A DNA stretch of 64,000 nucleotides from Solirubrobacteraceae bacterium (GTDB lineage Bacteria; Actinomycetota; Thermoleophilia; Solirubrobacterales; Solirubrobacteraceae), in NCBI GenBank assembly GCA_017744415.1, contig JAGIBJ010000045.1:1-64000 (forward strand), in the 5' to 3' direction. A program made the translations under genes and the position numbers. Each line of letters starts with the position of its first letter. Position 1 is the first letter of the stretch. Below, one piece after another: positions 1 through 16,775 of the stretch. The notes under the pieces are model-generated. The model was not told where the DNA came from and ran no database searches. It worked only from the letters and a program-made list of their open reading frames with translations.

Positions 1-291
1 CTGTCGGGCGGCGGCACCGAGGTGATCAGTCTCGGCGAGCGCTGCCTGCTCGGCGCCAACGCCGGCCTCGGCATCTCCCTCGGTGACGACTGCGTGATCG
101 AGGCCGGCCTCTACGTCACCGGCGGCACGGTCGTCACCCTCCCCGACGGCACTACCGCCAAGGCCCGCGACCTCTCCGGCCAAAACGACCTGCTCCTACG
201 CCGCAACTCGGTCACCGGCGCCGTCGAGGCACTCCCGCGCAGCGGCGGCTCCTGGCAGGGCCTGAACGCCGCGCTCCACGCCAACGACTAG
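1..291 (+). CDS. dapD: 2,3,4,5-tetrahydropyridine-2,6-dicarboxylate N-succinyltransferase, 3' end only
   Basis: The reading frame is open from the first base, so the start lies upstream of the window; 96 C-terminal residues are visible. The segment LSGGGTEVISLGERCLLGAN followed by GLGISLGDDCVIEAGLYVTGG is the left-handed beta-helix end of actinobacterial-type DapD. DapD succinylates tetrahydrodipicolinate in the succinylase branch of diaminopimelate and lysine synthesis, in the cytoplasm, using succinyl-CoA. Other steps of the same pathway are encoded at 7844-8716 (dapF), 49275-50165 (dapA) and 50244-50906 (dapB), so the pathway genes are scattered rather than in one operon. Confidence 0.9.
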   Translation: MSGGGTEVISLGERCLLGANAGLGISLGDDCVIEAGLYVTGGTVVTLPDGTTAKARDLSGQNDLLLRRNSVTGAVEALPRSGGSWQGLNAALHAND

Positions 292-2519: not shown

Positions 2520-3038
2520 CTACTTGGCGTGAACCTCCGACTCAACGAACTCGGCCAGCGTCGCCGCTTGGATCACGAACCCGTGCGCGGCAAGACGAGA
2601 GCACATGTCGAGCACCGGCTGATCGTCGGTCACGAACACATCGGCTCCGTCCACCACGTGCGACTCGACATGCCAACAGTCTTCGCGGTTCGGCGCGGCG
2701 TTGACGTGCGTCGGCCACCGTTCGACCTCAACGGTCCAGGCATCCCAGAACCCGTCGGCCGTGCTGCCGAACTTGAGGTCCGGAGCGAGCTGAGTAGCGG
2801 GACCGAACCTGCCTACCTGCTCCGCGACGCGGACGGTCTTGACGTCGATCAACTCGCGGAGTCGGTCGGCCACCTGGCCAGGCCGGAAGTCGAGCCGACT
2901 CCCCTGGGCGGCGATCGTCAGGAGGATCTCGCCACGAGCGGCGGCATCGAGAAGTGAGACGGCGTCCCCGTGGGCTCGCTCCCGCGGCTTGAAGTGCGCG
3001 TGGATCACGTTGGAGTCGATCGTCACGCGGAGCGGCAT
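2520..3038 (-). CDS. PIN-like domain protein, putative nuclease
   Basis: A 172-residue protein with the general features of a PIN-fold nuclease: an early aspartate in a beta-strand (VTIDSNVIHAHF, Asp8) and a late acidic strand (DVFVTDDQPVLDMCSRL, about residues 132-148) where PIN proteins keep metal-binding Asp residues. PIN domains cut single-stranded RNA with Mg or Mn ions and are common as VapC toxins. No convincing VapB-type antitoxin partner is seen next to it; the upstream region (3039-3278) contains no good ORF on this strand. It could act alone, or the 88-residue helical protein nearby (3953-4219) might be related to its control, which is speculation. Confidence 0.6.
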   Translation of the reverse strand: MPLRVTIDSNVIHAHFKPRERAHGDAVSLLDAAARGEILLTIAAQGSRLDFRPGQVADRLRELIDVKTVRVAEQVGRFGPATQLAPDLKFGSTADGFWDAWTVEVERWPTHVNAAPNREDCWHVESHVVDGADVFVTDDQPVLDMCSRLAAHGFVIQAATLAEFVESEVHAK

Positions 3039-3231
3039 GCGACGCAGCCTAGGAGGCTATGTACCACTTCGATATGCCCCCTCGCGCGAGGGACTACCGC
3101 AGCGTCCCTGGCGACCCTCGCGTACCGATCGTCGATTCTTCTCCGGTGGCGCACTGACGCTCGGCCGTTACCACCCCGGACGCGGCCGCACAACGCAGGA
3201 TCGCCAGCACCGGACAGGGTTCCGAGGGTCG

Positions 3232-3270
3232 CTAGGGTCGCCCTAGTTTTGCAAGAGAGGAGTTGCAAAC
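3232..3270. promoter_or_regulatory. two adjacent palindromes upstream of the serine recombinase (candidate operator or res-type site)
   Basis: A perfect 6-3-6 palindrome, CTAGGG-TCG-CCCTAG (3232-3246), is directly followed by a second dyad in which GTTTTGCAA and GTTGCAAAC flank 7 bp (3246-3270). Both lie just before the recombinase start at 3279. Serine recombinases commonly bind dyad sites beside their own genes, so this could be an autoregulatory operator or a recombination site. The first box shares 12 bases with the iron box at 20228. Confidence 0.45.
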
Positions 3271-3278
3271 CGGGAGGC

Positions 3279-3956
3279 ATGGAAGCGGGCACGAAGGTCA
3301 TCGGCTACACGCGCGTCTCGACGGCCGAGCGGGTCGCCGGGAGCCATGGCCTGGACGCCCAGGAGGCCGCCATCCGTGCCGAGGCAGAGCGCCGCGGGTG
3401 GCTGCTCGTGGGGATCGAGTGCGACGCCGGGGCGACCGGCAAGGACACGGACCGCCCGGGCCTCGCGGCGGCGCTGGAGGCCGTCAAGGGCAAGCGCGCC
3501 GAGGGCCTGATCGTCGCCAAGCTGGACCGCCTGTCGCGGTCGGTCGTCGACTTCGGATCGATCCTGGAAGCGTTCGACCGGATGGGCGCAACGCTCGTCG
3601 CCCTTGACCTTGGCGTGGACACGAGCACGCCGGGCGGAAGACTCGTCGCCAACGTGTTCGCCTCGGTCGCCCAGTGGGAGGCGGAGACGATCAGCCTGCG
3701 CACGAAGGAGGGCCTGGACGCTGCTCGCGCGAAGGGCCTTCCCATCAGCCGCCCCAGCGTCGCCGACGTTCCCGGCTTGCGCGAGCGGATCACCGGCATG
3801 CGAGCGGCCGGGAGGACGATGCAAAGCATCGCCGACGAGCTGAACGCGGATGGCGTGCCGACCCTCCGCGGCGCACCGAAGTGGACGACGAACAGCGTCA
3901 ACACGGCGCTGGGCTACAAGCGCCCGGCGAAGCGCCGCAAGGCGCTCGCGCTCTAG
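3279..3956 (+). CDS. serine recombinase (resolvase/invertase family)
   Basis: A 225-residue site-specific recombinase. The N-terminal catalytic domain begins with GYTRVSTAERV, where Ser14 is the nucleophile, and holds the typical LDRLSRSVVDF segment and a long E helix; it is followed by a C-terminal region (GMRAAGRTMQSIADELNADG, then TLRGAPKWTTNSVNTALG) like the short Recombinase/HTH domain of phage- and plasmid-type serine recombinases. It is shorter than large integrases and lacks their zinc-ribbon and coiled-coil parts. Start chosen at ATG 3279 because GGGAGG precedes it closely and the family N-terminus starts here; a much longer in-frame extension exists but shows no family match. The stop overlaps the stop of the converging 3953-4219 gene. 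It probably mobilises or maintains the surrounding island. Confidence 0.9.
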   Translation: MEAGTKVIGYTRVSTAERVAGSHGLDAQEAAIRAEAERRGWLLVGIECDAGATGKDTDRPGLAAALEAVKGKRAEGLIVAKLDRLSRSVVDFGSILEAFDRMGATLVALDLGVDTSTPGGRLVANVFASVAQWEAETISLRTKEGLDAARAKGLPISRPSVADVPGLRERITGMRAAGRTMQSIADELNADGVPTLRGAPKWTTNSVNTALGYKRPAKRRKALAL

Positions 3957-7843: not shown

Positions 7844-8716
7844 TTAGCCCGCCGCGAGGCGCCCGAGGAAATGCTCTGAGAGCTCGACCCGCCCGACGGG
7901 GACGGCCCAGCCGGCGAGATCGACGTGCAGCGACTCGTCGACGGTGACCTCGAGTTCGCCGCCGTCGAGTTCGACGGTGACGGGGCTGTCGCCCCCGCGG
8001 GCAACATGCGCGACGGCTGCGCCGGTAGCCCCGGTGCCTGACGACATCGTCTCCCCCACGCCGCGCTCGAAGATGCGCGCACGGATCCGGTTCGGCGCGA
8101 GCTCGGTGTACCACGAGACGTTCGTGCGGTTGGGGAACAGCGCGTGGTGCTCGATGCCGGGGCCGATCGCTGGCAGGTCGAGCGCCTCGAGCTCCCCGAC
8201 CGAGCTCACGCGGATCGAGCACTGCGGGTTGCCGATCTTCACGTGCTGGAAGCGCCAGGAGCGGTCGCCGTCGCGGAGCTCGCCAAGGCCGTCCGCGCCG
8301 CCACCCGGGTAGTCGGGCGAGCTGAGCTTCGCGCGGCCCATGTCGACGACGCAGCTGGTGTCGCCGGTGATCGTCGGCCGAAGCTCACCCGCGATTGTCT
8401 GGATCGAGAACGTGTCCTCGGTGGTCCAGCCGCGGTGGCGCAGGTACATGATCGCCTCGCGCGCGCCGTTGCCGGAGAGCTCGGCCTCGGAGCCGTCGGG
8501 GTTGTAGATGCGCAGCCGGGCCACGAACCCACGTTCCTCTGGCGCGCTCAGGAGCAGCAGGCCATCGCCGCCGACGCCCATGTGCCGGTCGCAGAGGATC
8601 CGCACGCGCTCCGGCGTGATCGGCCATGGCAGGCGGTCGGCCTCAGCGATGAGGTAGTCGTTGCCGAGCGCCTGCCAGCGCTCGATCGTCACCGCACTGG
8701 CACCGGGCGTCGTCAT
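7844..8716 (-). CDS. dapF: diaminopimelate epimerase (both catalytic cysteines replaced by serine)
   Basis: A 290-residue DapF, the enzyme that converts LL- to meso-diaminopimelate for lysine and peptidoglycan. The fold markers are all present: WQALGNDYLIAEAD at the start, NPDGSEAELSGNGAREA (residues 72-88), IGNPQCSIRV, and ERGVGETMSSGTGATGAAV (217-235). In known DapF enzymes the residue immediately before GNG and the one immediately before GTG are the two acid-base cysteines; here both are serine (Ser81 and Ser226). The other parts of both active-site loops are kept, which argues against decay. Start at ATG 8716; a TAGGAT hexamer eight bases upstream suggests a leaderless transcript. It lies 11 bp after miaA on the same strand. 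Confidence 0.88.
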   Translation of the reverse strand: MTTPGASAVTIERWQALGNDYLIAEADRLPWPITPERVRILCDRHMGVGGDGLLLLSAPEERGFVARLRIYNPDGSEAELSGNGAREAIMYLRHRGWTTEDTFSIQTIAGELRPTITGDTSCVVDMGRAKLSSPDYPGGGADGLGELRDGDRSWRFQHVKIGNPQCSIRVSSVGELEALDLPAIGPGIEHHALFPNRTNVSWYTELAPNRIRARIFERGVGETMSSGTGATGAAVAHVARGGDSPVTVELDGGELEVTVDESLHVDLAGWAVPVGRVELSEHFLGRLAAG

Positions 8717-11322: not shown

Positions 11323-12024
11323 CTACGCCTTCGACCGCTCCGCGGCGCTCGCGCTCGCGCTCGCGGCGAGTCCTACCTCGGCTGCCCACCAGTCGAAGAG
11401 CGCGAACGCCCGCGCCTCGAGGCCTGGGAGCAGCGCAGTGATCTCCTTGCGGACGGCCGCGAAGTCGACGGGCGGATGGTCGCCGGCCGCGCGCTGCGCC
11501 AGCCACGCGTCGATCGTCGCCTCGTCGACCTCCGGGTGGAACTGGAAGCCGACGTTCTGCCCCACGCGGTAGGCCTGCGTGCACAGATCGGTCGAGGCGA
11601 GGATGCCGGCGTCGCCCGGGAGCTCGAACGCGTCGTCGTGCCAACAAAACCACGGCATCGCCGTGATCGGTGAGTCCTCGGGACCCGCGGGCCGCACCCA
11701 GCCGAATTCTCCGGGGTGACGTGGCGCGACGGTGCCGCCGAGCGCACGCGCGAGGATCTGGCTCCCGAAGCAGAGCCCGAGCACTGGGATCTCGGCAGTG
11801 ATCGCCGCCTGCAGGAGCGCAAGCTCGGAGAGCACCTCGGGGCGGTCGCTCGCGGCCGTCTCCTCCCAGCCGAGCGACACGATCGCGCGCCACTCCGCCG
11901 GATCGGCGGGGATCTCACCGAAGGCGGTGACGGCGAACGGCAGCTCGCGCGCCTCGAGCCAGCGGGCGAACAAGCCCGGAGGCGAGTTCTCCTCGTGCGC
12001 GATCACGAGCACCGGGGCCGTCAC
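11323..12024 (-). CDS. class I glutamine amidotransferase-like protein (possible gamma-glutamyl hydrolase)
   Basis: A 233-residue stand-alone class I GATase domain. The nucleophile elbow is VLGLCFGSQILARAL (Cys about residue 104) and the His-Glu pair is in GFQFHPEVDEATI. The start GTG 12024 overlaps the nitrilase stop by four bases, so it is the last gene of the ligase-nitrilase-GATase operon. Free-standing domains of this type either supply ammonia to a partner or hydrolyse gamma-glutamyl amides, as PuuD does in putrescine breakdown. With a GS-like ligase in the same operon the second role is plausible; this is inference from context. Confidence 0.82.
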   Translation of the reverse strand: MTAPVLVIAHEENSPPGLFARWLEARELPFAVTAFGEIPADPAEWRAIVSLGWEETAASDRPEVLSELALLQAAITAEIPVLGLCFGSQILARALGGTVAPRHPGEFGWVRPAGPEDSPITAMPWFCWHDDAFELPGDAGILASTDLCTQAYRVGQNVGFQFHPEVDEATIDAWLAQRAAGDHPPVDFAAVRKEITALLPGLEARAFALFDWWAAEVGLAASASASAAERSKA

Positions 12025-13025
12025 GGCCGTGCACCGATCGTCGTCGGGCTGTGCACGGCGTCGCTGACGAACACGCCGGCCTGCTGCCTCGTGCGATCCA
12101 CCTGTACCCGGAACACGTCCGGGCGAGCGTAGTGGCCAACCGGATCGAAGGTGAGCCGCGCGGCGCCCACTCCCGCGCCATGCACGTCGACGAACGAGAT
12201 CCCCGTGCCGCCGGCGCGAGGCTCGATCACCCAGCGTCCGTCCGGGTCACTCGCCGCGGTGCCACCGTCGAAGGGACTCGGCTCGGGCCAGGCGGCCAAC
12301 TCGTCCCGCAGCGGGAACGACTCGGGCAGCGCGCCGAAGTCGAGCGCGCCGCCCACCGCAAGCGACCACACGCGGCCCTCGAGGGCGACGAACCGGGTGA
12401 TGTCGGCGGTGAGCTGCCGCGACCCCGGCCAGAGGCTCAGGTGCACGTCCTCCCCGTCTGCGTAGAGCGCGTGGCGGGCCTGCGGCATCCAGTTCTCCCA
12501 GCAGCTGAGGGCGCCGAGCCGCAGCCCGCCGACCTCGTACGTGCGCAGGCCAGCGCCATCGCCGCGACCCCAGACGAGCCGTTCGTCGTGGGTCGGCACG
12601 AGTTTGCGGTGCACGCCCACGAGCCCTGCGACCGGATCGATTGCAGCGATCGAGCACCACACCGTGCCGCGGCCGGCCGTGGCGCCGCGCTCGGCGAACC
12701 CGACGAACGCGAACACGCCGTGCGCGGCGCAGGCCTCGGCGAGCAGCGACAGCTCGGGCCCGTCGGCGGTGACCGCCTGCTCGAGGTACCACGCAAAGGC
12801 CGCCCGCTGGCCGGGGTCTTCAAACGCTGCGCCGTGGCTGCGCGACGGCCAGAACGGGTAGCCGCCGAGGAACGTCTCCGGGAAGGCAATCGCCTTCGCG
12901 CCGCCGGCGCCGGCCTCGGCGATCAGCGCCGCACCGCGCTGCGCGGTGGCGAGCGAGTCACCCCAGATCGGCGACGTCTGGGCGAGTGCGACGCGGAGCG
13001 CCGGCTCGGTTGCAAGGGCGGGCAT
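12021..13025 (-). CDS. nitrilase-family carbon-nitrogen hydrolase
   Basis: A 334-residue member of the nitrilase branch. The Glu-Lys-Cys triad is visible as FPETFLGGYPFWPS (Glu about residue 49), VHRKLVPTHDERLVWGRGDG (Lys about 140) and ALSCWENWMPQARHAL (Cys about 174). The CWEN form and the GGYP segment are typical of true nitrilases and cyanide or arylacetonitrile hydrolases rather than amidases, so a nitrile substrate is likely; the exact one is unknown. The start overlaps the stop of the upstream ligase gene (TGATG) and the stop overlaps the GATase start, giving a tightly coupled three-gene operon. Confidence 0.87.
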   Translation of the reverse strand: MPALATEPALRVALAQTSPIWGDSLATAQRGAALIAEAGAGGAKAIAFPETFLGGYPFWPSRSHGAAFEDPGQRAAFAWYLEQAVTADGPELSLLAEACAAHGVFAFVGFAERGATAGRGTVWCSIAAIDPVAGLVGVHRKLVPTHDERLVWGRGDGAGLRTYEVGGLRLGALSCWENWMPQARHALYADGEDVHLSLWPGSRQLTADITRFVALEGRVWSLAVGGALDFGALPESFPLRDELAAWPEPSPFDGGTAASDPDGRWVIEPRAGGTGISFVDVHGAGVGAARLTFDPVGHYARPDVFRVQVDRTRQQAGVFVSDAVHSPTTIGARP

Positions 13026-14485
13026 CAGTAGACGTCGAAGTACTCGCGGTGCTCCCAGTCGGTGACCGTGGAGAGGAACCGGCTCACCTCGCTGCCCTTC
13101 ACGGTGAGCAGGTAGTCCACGAACGGTGCACCGAACGCCTCCGCAAAGAGCGGATCAGCGCGGAGCTCGGTCATGGCATCCATCAGGCTGGCCGGCAGCG
13201 TCGGGCGTGTCTCGTCGAGATAGGCCTCGTCGCTCGGTGGCGGTGGCGTGAGGCCGCGATCGACGCCGTCGAGCCCGCTGACGAGTTGCGACGCCAAGAA
13301 CAGGTACGGATTGGCGGTCGGCTCCCCCACGCGGTTCTCGACGTGCGCCCCGGGATCGCCTGGATTGCCGATCACGCGGAGCATCGCGCCGCGATTCTCG
13401 TAGGCCCAGCCGATCTTGTGCGGGGCGAACGAGTCGGGGCGAAAGCGCTTGTAGCCGTTGATCGTCGGCGTAGTGAACACCGACGCGCCGGCGGCATGCT
13501 CGAGCACTCCGGCGACGAACGCCTCCGCGAGCGGCGAGAGCACACCCGCACCGCTGGGATCCGCGAACGCGTTCTCGCCGGTCTCCAGATCCGCGAGCGA
13601 CTGGTGCAGGTGCCAGCCGCTCGCGAAGAAGTTCGGGAGCCCCGGACGGCTCATGAACGTCGCGTGGTAGCCGTGGCGGCGGCACACCTGCTTGACCATC
13701 GAACGGAAGAGCAGCACGGCGTCGGCGGCCTCCAGGCCGTCCATCACGTCGAACGTGAACTCGCACTGGCCTGGGCCCCACTCGTCCTCGATCGTCGTCA
13801 GCGGCAGGCCGAGCGCCTCGGTGTGGTCGCGCAGGATGCTCATGATCCCGTCGATCTCGTCGGCGTGGTTGTCGGTGAGGTACTGGAAGCCGTGCGAGAT
13901 CGCCGTGACCTCCGGCGGATCGGGCGGGTAGGCGCACTCCGCCGGCGCAAGCTTCGGATCGACCATCTTCGTGACGTAGAACTCGATCTCGAGACCGGCC
14001 TTCATCGCGTAGCCGCGCTCGGCGAGCATCTCGAGCTGCGAGCGCAGGATGCCGCGCGAGCAGAACGGCACGGGCGTCCCGCTCTGGAAGTGCAGGTCGC
14101 AGAGGATCCAGCCGGTGTCGGCGGCCCACGGCAGCACCTTGAAGGTCGACGGGTCGGGGATCAGCACGCCGTCGGGCAGGCCCGTCATCTCGTCGACGCC
14201 GAAGCCCGAGCGTCCGAACGGCGGGACCGCGGGGTTGTTCGTCGTGTCGAAGATCAGCGTTGCCGTCTGGAAGTCCTTGCCGGCTGAGAGCGCCCGCTCG
14301 AACTCGCGGGGCGTGAGCGTCTTGCCGCGGACGATCCCGTGCTGGTCGCCCCAGCCGATGCGGATCTGCTTGAGCCCGAGCTCGGCGATGCGCGCCGGGA
14401 GCCCGGCGGCGGCGGCGTGCTGCTCGGGCGTCCATCGGGCGTGCTGCTCGATGAACGTTTGCGTTGGCGTCGTCGGCGTCGTCAC
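13025..14485 (-). CDS. glutamine synthetase-like gamma-glutamyl ligase
   Basis: A 486-residue GS-family enzyme, close to the usual length. Beta-grasp N-domain at about residues 25-115, then the catalytic domain with GLEIEFYV, EDEWGPGQCEFTFDV, GWHLHQSL, FRPDSFAPHKIGWAYENRGA and HVENRVGEPTANPYLFLAS. The last two are the ATP/glutamate site; GWHLHQSL replaces the GSGMHVHQSL-type loop of true GS. Such GlnA-like proteins often ligate glutamate to an amine (polyamines, ethanolamine, anilines) in catabolism. The operon partners (nitrilase, amidotransferase) and divergent FadR-type regulator support a catabolic role rather than ammonium assimilation. GTG 14485 is chosen because GAGG lies just upstream and the frame before it is Pro/Ala-rich. 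Confidence 0.85.
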   Translation of the reverse strand: MTTPTTPTQTFIEQHARWTPEQHAAAAGLPARIAELGLKQIRIGWGDQHGIVRGKTLTPREFERALSAGKDFQTATLIFDTTNNPAVPPFGRSGFGVDEMTGLPDGVLIPDPSTFKVLPWAADTGWILCDLHFQSGTPVPFCSRGILRSQLEMLAERGYAMKAGLEIEFYVTKMVDPKLAPAECAYPPDPPEVTAISHGFQYLTDNHADEIDGIMSILRDHTEALGLPLTTIEDEWGPGQCEFTFDVMDGLEAADAVLLFRSMVKQVCRRHGYHATFMSRPGLPNFFASGWHLHQSLADLETGENAFADPSGAGVLSPLAEAFVAGVLEHAAGASVFTTPTINGYKRFRPDSFAPHKIGWAYENRGAMLRVIGNPGDPGAHVENRVGEPTANPYLFLASQLVSGLDGVDRGLTPPPPSDEAYLDETRPTLPASLMDAMTELRADPLFAEAFGAPFVDYLLTVKGSEVSRFLSTVTDWEHREYFDVY

Positions 14486-14528
14486 TGGCGGTCCTCGCGG
14501 GAGTCGGGGTGCCGCGCCGGTGAGAGCT

Positions 14529-14563
14529 CCGGGCGCATGCCCGGCGGCATTGACTGCCGCCGG
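14529..14563. promoter_or_regulatory. two inverted repeats in the leader of the ligase operon
   Basis: CCGGGC and GCCCGG flank GCAT at 14529-14544, and directly next to it a perfect 9-bp inverted repeat (CCGGCGGCA / TGCCGCCGG) flanks TTGAC at 14541-14563. The two share bases, so the hairpins would be mutually exclusive in RNA. They lie between the FadR-type operator and the ligase start, in the presumed 5' leader, and could be an additional operator or a leader structure. Confidence 0.4.
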
Positions 14564-14569
14564 TGCAAA

Positions 14570-14581
14570 TTGGTCGACCAA
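14570..14581. promoter_or_regulatory. FadR-type GntR operator, perfect 12-bp palindrome
   Basis: TTGGTCGACCAA is a perfect palindrome in the divergent region between the GS-like operon and the GntR gene. FadR-subfamily regulators typically bind TGGT-N(1-3)-ACCA dyads, and the adjacent regulator is of that subfamily, so this is very probably its operator, controlling both directions. Confidence 0.7.
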
Positions 14582-14624
14582 TCATCCATTACGCCAATCC
14601 GGGCTGTCAAGTACAGTCCGGCGA

Positions 14625-15329
14625 GTGACCGGTCAGATGCGCCCGATCGCCCCGCTGGAGCGCCGCCCGCTGCATGAGCAAGTGGCCGATCGCCTGCGTG
14701 AGCTCATCGACGACCAGCGCCTGCAGCCCGGCGACAAGATCACGCCGGAGCGCGACCTTGCCCTGCAGCTCGGCGTGAGCCGCCATTCGGTGCGCCAGGC
14801 CCTCGCCGCGCTCCGCGCGCTCGGCATCGTCCAGATCCGTCACGGCGACGGCGTCTACCTCGCCGAGCGCCCCGATGACCTCGTCCCTCACCTCGCCCGC
14901 GAACTCGCCAACAGCCAGGCGCAGTTCCCGCACATCTGGGAGGTGCGGCAGGCGATCGAGAGTCAGAACGCGCGCCTTGCCGCCCGCCGCGCCACGGAGG
15001 CTGATCTCGCGGCGATGCGCGCCGCGCTCGACGCGATGGCCGAAGCGATCGAAGCCGGCGGCGACGTCACCGACGGCGACCATGACTTTCACCGCGCCGT
15101 GGCCACTGCCGCGCAGAATCCGCTGATCGACGCGCTCATGCGCGATCTCTCCGGCCCCTTCGCCGACACCTCCGCAACGTCGCTCGCCAAGCCCGGCCAG
15201 GCGGAGCGCTCACTGGCCGACCACGAGGTGATCCTCGGCGCGATCGAACGTGGCGACGAGGAGGGCGCGGCCCGGGCGATGCTCGCGCACCTCGTCGGTA
15301 CGACGGCGCTGGCGTTCGACGGCGACTGA
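14625..15329 (+). CDS. FadR/FCD-type GntR transcriptional regulator
   Basis: A 234-residue regulator. The winged-helix domain (about residues 8-75) has LHEQVADRLRELIDDQRLQP, GDKITPERDLALQLGVSRHS and VRQALAALRALGIVQIRHGD; the C-terminal all-helical FCD domain follows, with metal-site-like segments (EVRQAIESQNARLAARRAT; GDHDFHRAVATAAQNPLI; DHEVILGAIERGDEEGA). FCD domains bind small carboxylic effectors. GTG 14625 lies seven bases after a TACAGT hexamer and is taken as a leaderless start; ATG 14637 is the alternative. It is divergent from the GS-like/nitrilase/GATase operon and almost certainly controls it through the TTGGTCGACCAA palindrome. Confidence 0.87.
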   Translation: MTGQMRPIAPLERRPLHEQVADRLRELIDDQRLQPGDKITPERDLALQLGVSRHSVRQALAALRALGIVQIRHGDGVYLAERPDDLVPHLARELANSQAQFPHIWEVRQAIESQNARLAARRATEADLAAMRAALDAMAEAIEAGGDVTDGDHDFHRAVATAAQNPLIDALMRDLSGPFADTSATSLAKPGQAERSLADHEVILGAIERGDEEGAARAMLAHLVGTTALAFDGD

Positions 15330-15361: not shown

Positions 15362-16690
15362 TTAGCGCGCGAGCGCGAGATCGACGAGCGACTGGTTGCC
15401 CGTGAGGGTCTGGCTCGTCGCGCCGGTGATCCCGACGTGCGTGAAGGTACCGGGCTCCCCGAAGCCCTCGAAGTTCACGGCCTTGTTGTGGCTCGTGCGG
15501 CCGCGCAGGCGGCTCGGATCGGTGCGCGAGGGGCCCTCGATCAGCACTTCCATCGTGCGCCCGACGAACCGCTGGGCGCGCTCGTGCGCGTTGCGCTGGA
15601 TCACCTCGACGAGCCGCTGCATCCGCTCGACCTTCACGTCGTGCGGCACGAGGCCCTCGGTGAACTCGGCGGCCTCGGTGTGGCGGCGCGGGCTGAAGAT
15701 GAACGTGAAGGCCGAATCGAACTGCACGAGTTCGCACACCTCGAGCGTCTCCTGGAAGTCCTCCTCGGTCTCACCGGGGAAGCCGACGATGATGTCGGTG
15801 GAGAGGGCGACGTCGGGGATACCCGCGCGGATCATGGCGACGCGGTCGATGAAACGCTCACGGTCGTAGGTGCGGCGCATCGCCTTCAGGATCTTGCTGC
15901 TGCCCGCCTGAAGCGGCAGGTGGACGTGCTCGCAGATCGTGTCGAGCTCGGCGTGCACGTCGACGACGTCCTGCTTGATGTCCTGCGGGTGCGGCGACGT
16001 GTAGCGCACGCGCTTCATGCCCGGGATCGAGCCGACCTCGCGCAGCAGCTCGGAGAACTCGCGCCGCTGCGGCCGCAGATCGCGGCCGTAGGCGTTCACG
16101 TTCTGGCCGAGCAGCGTGATCTCGACGACGCCCTCGGACGCCAGCCGCCGTGCCTCCTCGACGATCTCGTCGTACGGGCGGCTCACGTGACGGCCGCGGG
16201 TGCTCGGAACGATGCAGTACGAGCACTTCATGTGGCAGCCGACGCTGATCTGCAGCCACGCCTGGTGCGGGCGATCGCGCTTCGTCGGCAGGTGCGCGGG
16301 GAAGCCCTCGAACTCGAAGTAGCCCTGGGCCGTGATCGAGTCGCTCGTGAGGAACTCGGCGAGCTTCGGCACCTGGCCTGGGCCAAACGCGACGTCGACG
16401 AACGGGAACTGCTCGAAGACGAGGTCCTTCATCGACTGCGCCCAGCACCCGCCGACGCCGATCACGGTGCCGGGGTTGTTGCGCTTGACGATCTTCGCGT
16501 CGTGCAGATGGGCGACGAAGCGCTCGTCGGCCTTCTCGCGGATCGAGCACGTGTTGAAGAGGATGAGATCCGCGTCCTCGCGCCGCTCCGAGGCGGTGTA
16601 GCCGAGCGACTCGAGCATGCCCTTCATGCGCTCGGAGTCGTGCTCGTTCATCTGGCACCCGAAGGTGGTGACGTGGTAGCGCTTGCTCAT
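15362..16690 (-). CDS. miaB: tRNA-2-methylthio-N6-dimethylallyladenosine synthase
   Basis: A 442-residue radical SAM methylthiotransferase that adds the methylthio group to the base made by MiaA. The N-terminal UPF0004 domain carries its three cluster cysteines in TFGCQMNEHDSE (Cys12), FNTCSIREKA and GVGGCWAQ; the radical SAM cluster is CHMKCSYC; and a TRAM domain ends the protein (RTMEVLIEGPSR). Start at ATG 16690, since a longer form adds only four residues. The usual miaB-miaA neighbourhood is broken here: about 5.7 kb, including a catabolic operon and an SDR-methyltransferase pair, lies between them. Confidence 0.93.
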   Translation of the reverse strand: MSKRYHVTTFGCQMNEHDSERMKGMLESLGYTASERREDADLILFNTCSIREKADERFVAHLHDAKIVKRNNPGTVIGVGGCWAQSMKDLVFEQFPFVDVAFGPGQVPKLAEFLTSDSITAQGYFEFEGFPAHLPTKRDRPHQAWLQISVGCHMKCSYCIVPSTRGRHVSRPYDEIVEEARRLASEGVVEITLLGQNVNAYGRDLRPQRREFSELLREVGSIPGMKRVRYTSPHPQDIKQDVVDVHAELDTICEHVHLPLQAGSSKILKAMRRTYDRERFIDRVAMIRAGIPDVALSTDIIVGFPGETEEDFQETLEVCELVQFDSAFTFIFSPRRHTEAAEFTEGLVPHDVKVERMQRLVEVIQRNAHERAQRFVGRTMEVLIEGPSRTDPSRLRGRTSHNKAVNFEGFGEPGTFTHVGITGATSQTLTGNQSLVDLALAR

Positions 16691-16775
16691 CCGAATGCCC
16701 AAGGGTACCGGGCCCCGCGCCCGTGCCGCAGCCGTCCGCCCGAGGGGCCGCGCCGTAGCCGTCGAGCCGCGCGGC

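What the first reader, a model, noticed from the sequence alone, without database searches (positions are those of the whole stretch)
7844..8716. DapF with serine in place of both catalytic cysteines
Seen: the residue before GNG is Ser81 and the residue before GTGA is Ser226, although the surrounding loops are intact (AELSGNGAREA and GETMSSGTGATG). Known: DapF and the related proline-racemase superfamily use two cysteines as the acid and base at these positions. Inference: either a serine-based epimerase, a changed reaction or substrate, or a lineage in which this protein lost epimerase function and another enzyme supplies meso-DAP. Since the other Dap enzymes are present and meso-DAP is needed for many actinobacterial walls, the question matters.
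Basis: partly seen in the sequence, partly recalled or inferred. Interest (0 to 1): 0.78.

Follow-up and report, generated by a model that had tools for sequence, protein, structure and literature searches.

The report
Cell-wall epimerase with serine-only active site
A whole order of soil actinobacteria makes a cell-wall and lysine building block with a DapF enzyme in which both textbook catalytic cysteines are fixed as serines; no replacement enzyme was found, so a serine-based version of this reaction may exist in nature.

Summary
The gene at 7844-8716 (minus strand) encodes a full-length DapF (above the NCBIfam DapF cutoff) with Ser81 (TCC) and Ser226 (TCA) exactly where the catalytic cysteines belong. 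It is neither an error nor decay: all 119 Solirubrobacterales sequences examined are Ser/Ser, as are two further lineages of the class (16 sequences); sister families are Cys/Cys. Ser226 switched between TCN and AGY codons at least nine times on the tree while staying Ser. The gene is single-copy, lies in the same miaB-miaA-dapF locus as the Cys/Cys orthologues, and often neighbours dapD and dapE, which make LL-DAP. These organisms contain meso-DAP (published for an isolate whose DapF is Ser/Ser here), have lysA and murE, and lack DAP dehydrogenase. Best explanation: this is the working DAP epimerase, using two serines, or serines helped by neighbouring groups, in place of the thiolate/thiol pair. 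No assay exists. Ser/Cys and Cys/Ser forms also occur, so cysteine loss is recurrent. Published precedent stops at Ser/Cys hydroxyproline epimerases; engineered Cys-to-Ser mutants of a DapF-like racemase keep under 0.1% activity.

The parts
7844..8716 (-). dapF, DAP epimerase orthologue with Ser/Ser active site (290 aa, stop included)
   Evidence: AlphaFold model pLDDT 94.6
8474..8476 (-). codon of Ser81 (TCC) at the first catalytic Cys position, loop AELSGNGAREA
8039..8041 (-). codon of Ser226 (TCA) at the second catalytic Cys position, loop GETMSSGTGATG
8222..8224 (-). codon of Gln165 (GNPQ), where the Cys/Cys enzymes have His (GNPH); Gln in 119 of 119 Solirubrobacterales
8063..8068 (-). codons of Glu217-Arg218 (ERG motif), conserved substrate-contact residues
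   Evidence: equivalents mutated in C. glutamicum DapF (PMC5296763)
8728..9666 (-). miaA (IPP transferase), 11 bases upstream of dapF; part of the conserved miaB-miaA-dapF locus (start approximate)
   Evidence: PF01715 183.3 bits; synteny
15362..16702 (-). miaB-like radical SAM/TRAM methylthiotransferase, same conserved locus
   Evidence: synteny
1..291 (+). 3' end of dapD (tetrahydrodipicolinate N-succinyltransferase), cut by the contig start; LL-DAP branch gene 7.5 kb from dapF
   Evidence: tblastn with actinobacterial DapD, 128 bits; translation

Best explanation
P0001 is the cell's genuine LL-DAP to meso-DAP epimerase, vertically inherited from a Cys/Cys DapF. Proposed mechanism (inferred): the closed, desolvated active site and the helix dipoles let one serine, as alkoxide or by passing its proton to a neighbouring group, remove the alpha proton from one face of LL-DAP, while the other serine protonates the carbanion from the opposite face. 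A lower turnover than in Cys/Cys enzymes is acceptable, and the enzyme can no longer be switched off by the catalytic disulphide. Shown here: position, fixation, constraint, fold, retained substrate contacts, pathway neighbourhood, and absence of the known alternatives. Inferred: that it epimerises DAP and that the serines carry the protons.
For: (1) Fixed Ser/Ser in 119/119 Solirubrobacterales and 16/16 sequences of two further Thermoleophilia families, with Cys/Cys sister families. (2) Ser226 changed codon class TCN/AGY at least 9 times on the tree yet stayed Ser: selection for serine. (3) Residues matching the C. glutamicum substrate contacts (N15, N74, N85, N159, N194, E212, R213, T223; PMC5296763) are kept: N19, N72, N163, N199, E217, R218 in all 135 Ser/Ser sequences, N83 in 133, T228 as Thr/Ser. 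(4) AlphaFold pLDDT 94.6; helices 82-94 and 227-239 start right after the two serines; best solved match is inhibitor-bound cyanobacterial DapF 9mro, Z 36.5, rmsd 1.9 over 269 residues. (5) Same miaB-miaA-dapF locus as the Cys/Cys orthologues; dapD and dapE close to Ser/Ser dapF in 5/5 f7 loci and about a third of Solirubrobacterales loci with 5 kb downstream; in the window the dapD end lies 7.5 kb away. (6) One DapF per genome, also in single-contig genomes. (7) DAP dehydrogenase over cutoff in 1 of 199 class genomes, a Cys/Cys one; lysA over cutoff in 39/41, murE in 20/21 relatives. (8) meso-DAP is the diagnostic wall diamino acid of all Solirubrobacterales (PMC3035278) and was found in Solirubrobacter deserti CPCC 204708 (PMC10722151), whose DapF is Ser/Ser (L069, L071). 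(9) In the related proline racemase superfamily a natural Ser/Cys enzyme is a working 4-hydroxyproline epimerase (PMC4113996).
Against: Engineered single Cys-to-Ser mutants of a DapF-like racemase keep under 0.1% activity (PMC8225329), and catalytic-Cys-to-Ser mutants are used to hinder catalysis for crystallography (PMC12039745). I know of no assayed Ser/Ser enzyme of this fold, and a Ser/Thr relative is a dehydratase (PMC4113996). In Solirubrobacterales the conserved His of GNPH, called essential for epimerase activity (PMC5885031), is Gln, which removes a likely helper base. An enzyme of a kind not searched for could make meso-DAP.
Confidence: 0.62

Rival explanations
1. The protein has lost epimerase activity and is kept for another role (LL-DAP sensing, complex scaffold, regulation), while an unrelated, unrecognised enzyme makes meso-DAP.
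For: Both canonical catalytic cysteines are missing and, in the order, the assisting His too. Single Cys-to-Ser mutants of relatives are nearly dead (PMC8225329). E. coli DapF is known to have a partner outside lysine synthesis, RppH (PMC4227774, listed).
Against: No DAP dehydrogenase, second DapF or proline-racemase-family enzyme in most relatives, and no additional racemase family shared by all. Full retention of the substrate contacts and both catalytic loops, and selection for Ser itself rather than drift. dapD and dapE neighbours.
Confidence: 0.17
2. It epimerises or otherwise converts a different substrate, or catalyses elimination, as the Ser/Thr members of the proline racemase family do.
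For: Cys replacement marks function change in part of the proline racemase superfamily (PMC4113996). Lineage-specific changes near the site: GNPH to GNPQ, TNVE to TNVS or TNVQ, W216 to F.
Against: Same orthologous locus as the Cys/Cys enzymes, single copy, beside LL-DAP genes. DAP contact residues are kept. DAP has no beta leaving group for elimination. The lineage would then lack any recognised DAP epimerase.
Confidence: 0.08
3. It is the DAP epimerase, but a residue other than the two serines is the base: conserved Cys42, Cys166, Glu217, Gln/His165 or a bound water, with the serines only relaying or positioning.
For: Cys42 is kept in 118/119 Solirubrobacterales and 13/14 f7, Glu217 in all.
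Against: Cys42 is equally common in Cys/Cys enzymes (62/65) and so is not a moved catalytic Cys; Cys166 is absent from all f7 Ser/Ser enzymes. No side-chain distances could be measured here.
Confidence: 0.12
4. Assembly error or pseudogene.
For: The window comes from a draft assembly of 139 contigs.
Against: Same residues in over 130 sequences from many independent genomes, including isolates and single-contig chromosomes; synonymous codon variation; intact reading frame.
Confidence: 0.01

Closest known systems
Canonical diaminopimelate epimerase DapF (TIGR00652/PF01678; H. influenzae, E. coli, C. glutamicum, Anabaena 9mro)
   Same: Fold, length, substrate-contact residues, both catalytic loops, genomic locus (miaB-miaA-dapF in sister families), pathway neighbours dapD and dapE
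   Different: Both catalytic Cys are Ser; in Solirubrobacterales GNPH is GNPQ and TNVE is TNVS
Ser/Cys 4-hydroxyproline 2-epimerase of the proline racemase superfamily (Avi_0518, B9JQV3; PMC4113996)
   Same: Same di-domain fold class; a natural serine acts as one of the two acid/base residues in a proven epimerase
   Different: Keeps one Cys; different substrate and family; here both are Ser
[quoted passage not shown] PMC4113996)
   Same: No catalytic Cys at all; serine is the catalytic residue
   Different: Catalyses dehydration, not epimerisation; a different family, outside the DAP pathway
Chlamydia DapF (bifunctional DAP epimerase/glutamate racemase; PMC5885031)
   Same: DapF with unusual active-site changes doing essential cell-wall work
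   Different: Both cysteines are kept, and required for its racemase activity

Membership tests
DapF, diaminopimelate epimerase (TIGR00652 / PF01678) | Score over the curated cutoff of the DapF model | tested here: met
   171.7 bits against cutoff 114.65; PF01678 137.5 against 34.7
DapF, diaminopimelate epimerase (TIGR00652 / PF01678) | Two-domain DapF fold | tested here: met
   Model pLDDT 94.6; Z 36.5 to 9mro over 269 residues
DapF, diaminopimelate epimerase (TIGR00652 / PF01678) | Two catalytic cysteines, one in each domain | tested here: not met
   Ser81 and Ser226; fixed in the lineage
DapF, diaminopimelate epimerase (TIGR00652 / PF01678) | DAP contact residues (Asn x5, Glu-Arg, Thr of C. 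glutamicum DapF) | tested here: met
   N19, N72, N83, N163, N199, E217, R218, T228 present in P0001 and nearly invariant in the lineage
DapF, diaminopimelate epimerase (TIGR00652 / PF01678) | Orthology to Cys/Cys DapF by locus | tested here: met
   miaB-miaA-dapF in Ser and Cys lineages
DapF, diaminopimelate epimerase (TIGR00652 / PF01678) | LL-DAP to meso-DAP epimerase activity | not testable with these tools
   Needs an enzyme assay
Proline racemase superfamily (PF05544) | Match to PF05544 | tested here: not met
   Only PF01678 is reported for P0001; sequence and fold are closest to DapF
meso-DAP dehydrogenase route (Ddh, TIGR01921) | Ddh gene present, making DapF dispensable | tested here: not met
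   0 Ser/Ser genomes over cutoff; 1 of 199 class genomes, a Cys/Cys one

The most novel reading that the evidence does not exclude
Probability: 0.45. Interest if true: 0.88.

Novelty: new variant of a known kind. Interest (0 to 1): 0.76.

Why it matters
[quoted passage not shown] A natural Ser/Ser DapF kept across more than 130 sequences, in organisms that contain meso-DAP and lack the known bypass, makes the question 'is thiol chemistry necessary for this reaction?' directly testable with one complementation and one assay. It would also give ready-made comparison forms (natural Ser/Cys and Cys/Ser enzymes), a possible escape from the redox switch described for Cys/Cys DapF (PMC5296763), and a caution for annotation: 183 of 199 class genomes score over the DapF cutoff although many of them lack the catalytic residues.

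Tried and rejected
Shifted catalytic cysteine: rejected; no gap near either site, and the only Cys common to all Ser/Ser lineages (Cys42) is as frequent in Cys/Cys enzymes. Sequencing error or pseudogene: rejected. Second DapF in the genome: none at E up to 10; relatives have one each. DAP dehydrogenase bypass: not found. Proline-racemase-family enzyme: only in 2 of 31 relatives. Alanine-racemase-fold enzymes: one strong Alr-like match in most genomes, the weaker hits being partly lysA and others without a consistent extra member. Asp/Glu racemase family: patchy, absent from some near-complete genomes. Side-chain distances could not be measured because model coordinates are not exposed. Papers: nine full-text searches found no description of a Ser/Ser DapF; most subscription journals are not held, so this is not proof of absence.

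Full report
What is there. The minus strand of 7844-8716 encodes a 290-residue protein that scores 171.7 bits against the NCBIfam DapF model (cutoff 114.65) and 137.5 bits against Pfam DAP_epimerase. Ser81 (TCC) and Ser226 (TCA) stand in the two catalytic-cysteine columns. AlphaFold, fed with 46 relatives, gives pLDDT 94.6, with helices starting at residues 82 and 227, directly after each serine. The best solved structure is an inhibitor-bound cyanobacterial DAP epimerase (9mro, Z 36.5, rmsd 1.9 over 269 residues).

How widespread. The window's genome has one DapF. Of 61 genomes in the relatives search (the window's own included), 59 have exactly one match, including single-contig chromosomes. 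All 119 aligned Solirubrobacterales sequences are Ser/Ser; some come from the same genome held in two collections, and 116 Ser/Ser sequences of all lineages together remain after near-duplicates are dropped. In the rest of the class, family f7 (14 sequences) and f11 (2) are also Ser/Ser; f5, f6, f8, f10 and most of f9 are Cys/Cys; five f9 sequences are Ser/Cys. Elsewhere in the phylum, the sequences examined from f22 and f49 are Cys/Ser, and f25 and f39 genomes hold a Cys/Cys DapF plus a divergent Ser-bearing paralogue. On a tree of 109 sequences Ser/Ser needs three changes, Cys/Ser two and Ser/Cys one. Within the class, one gain with reversals and several gains fit equally well, so the number of origins is open.

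Constraint. Ser81 is encoded by TCG, TCC, TCA, TCT and AGC, and Ser226 likewise. On a tree of 116 distinct Ser/Ser sequences, Ser226 changed between TCN and AGY codons at least nine times. Each such change needs two base substitutions, with Thr or Cys as the usual single-step intermediate, so serine itself is being selected. The C. glutamicum residues whose Ala mutants were tested as substrate contacts (PMC5296763) match N19, N72, N83, N163, N199, E217, R218 and T228 here. Six of them are invariant in all 135 Ser/Ser sequences, N83 is kept in 133, and T228 is Thr or Ser. The matching of residue numbers was done by motif.

What changed with it. In Solirubrobacterales, but not in f7 or f11, GNPH became GNPQ (119/119) and TNVE became TNVS (118/119); f7 has TNVQ. 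The His of GNPH has been called essential for epimerase catalysis (PMC5885031). Its loss in one Ser/Ser lineage and retention in two others means that Ser/Ser does not require it to change.

Pathway context. miaA lies 11 bases upstream of dapF in the window, and miaB-miaA-dapF is shared with Cys/Cys relatives. In five of five f7 loci dapD and dapE lie within about 3 kb of the Ser/Ser dapF. Among 52 Solirubrobacterales loci with at least 5 kb downstream, 19 have dapD and 18 dapE; examples are identified as DapD_actino, another dapD model and dapE-gram_pos. The window itself begins with the 3' end of dapD. dapD and dapE make LL-DAP, so an epimerase step is needed. lysA is over cutoff in 39 of 41 and murE in 20 of 21 relatives. 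DAP dehydrogenase, the known bypass, is over cutoff in only 1 of 199 class genomes, a Cys/Cys one. No proline-racemase-family enzyme was found in 29 of 31 relatives, and no extra alanine- or glutamate-racemase-type enzyme is common to all.

The product is present. meso-DAP is described as the diagnostic wall diamino acid of all Solirubrobacterales (PMC3035278) and was found in Solirubrobacter deserti CPCC 204708 (PMC10722151), whose two database records here (L069, L071) encode Ser/Ser DapF. That measurement was on whole-cell hydrolysates. Routine chromatography of DAP isomers separates LL from meso well but DD from meso poorly (my knowledge, not tested).

Interpretation. The simplest account is that this is the working DAP epimerase of the lineage. 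Shown: orthology, fixation, selection for Ser, fold, contacts, pathway neighbourhood, and absence of the known alternatives. Inferred: catalysis, and the serines as acid and base. Precedent exists for one serine: a natural Ser/Cys 4-hydroxyproline epimerase, while a Ser/Thr relative is a dehydratase (PMC4113996). Against it, single Cys-to-Ser mutants of a DapF-like racemase keep less than 0.1% activity (PMC8225329), but those enzymes were tuned for thiols. A possible driver is redox: in C. glutamicum DapF the two cysteines form an inactivating disulphide (PMC5296763), which a Ser/Ser enzyme cannot do. This is a hypothesis only.

Verdict. Observation confirmed; a serine-based DAP epimerase is the best explanation (0.62) and is untested. 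It is a new variant of a known enzyme kind, with published precedent only for half of the change. Nine library searches found no earlier description, but the library lacks most subscription journals.

Noticed in passing
L220, L222, L227, L230 (genomes G490, G531, G335, G286; families f25 and f39): These genomes carry a Cys/Cys DapF-like match plus a second, divergent paralogue with Ser81, NPDAS and a rebuilt second loop (ASATG or similar): a candidate new activity.
   Followed up: partly
L232, L233, L238-L244 (families f22 and f49): The listed DapF match has Cys at the first site and Ser at the second (MCGNG ... ASGSG/ASGTG): an independent loss of one catalytic cysteine.
   Followed up: partly
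L127, L130, L131, L133, L136 (family f9): Natural Ser/Cys DapFs nested among Cys/Cys relatives: the first catalytic cysteine alone has been lost.
   Followed up: partly
G022, G037, G039, G040, G045 (Solirubrobacterales): No Asp/Glu racemase (PF01177) match in several near-complete genomes, two of them single-contig, so the source of D-Glu for the wall is unclear.
   Followed up: no
G086 C47:161469-162437 (family f5): A genome with both a strong DAP dehydrogenase (422 bits) and a Cys/Cys DapF, the only one over cutoff of 199 in the class.
   Followed up: no
window 11323-14581 (-) and 14049-15329 (+): Adjacent GATase, carbon-nitrogen hydrolase and glutamine-synthetase-like genes next to an ORF that looks like a GntR/FadR-type regulator by eye; resembles a nitrogen or polyamine catabolism cluster.
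   Followed up: no
window 2970-3956 (+): Serine recombinase (resolvase domain) in the stretch between the dapD end and dapF, which are closer together in several relatives; possibly an insertion that separated them.
   Followed up: no
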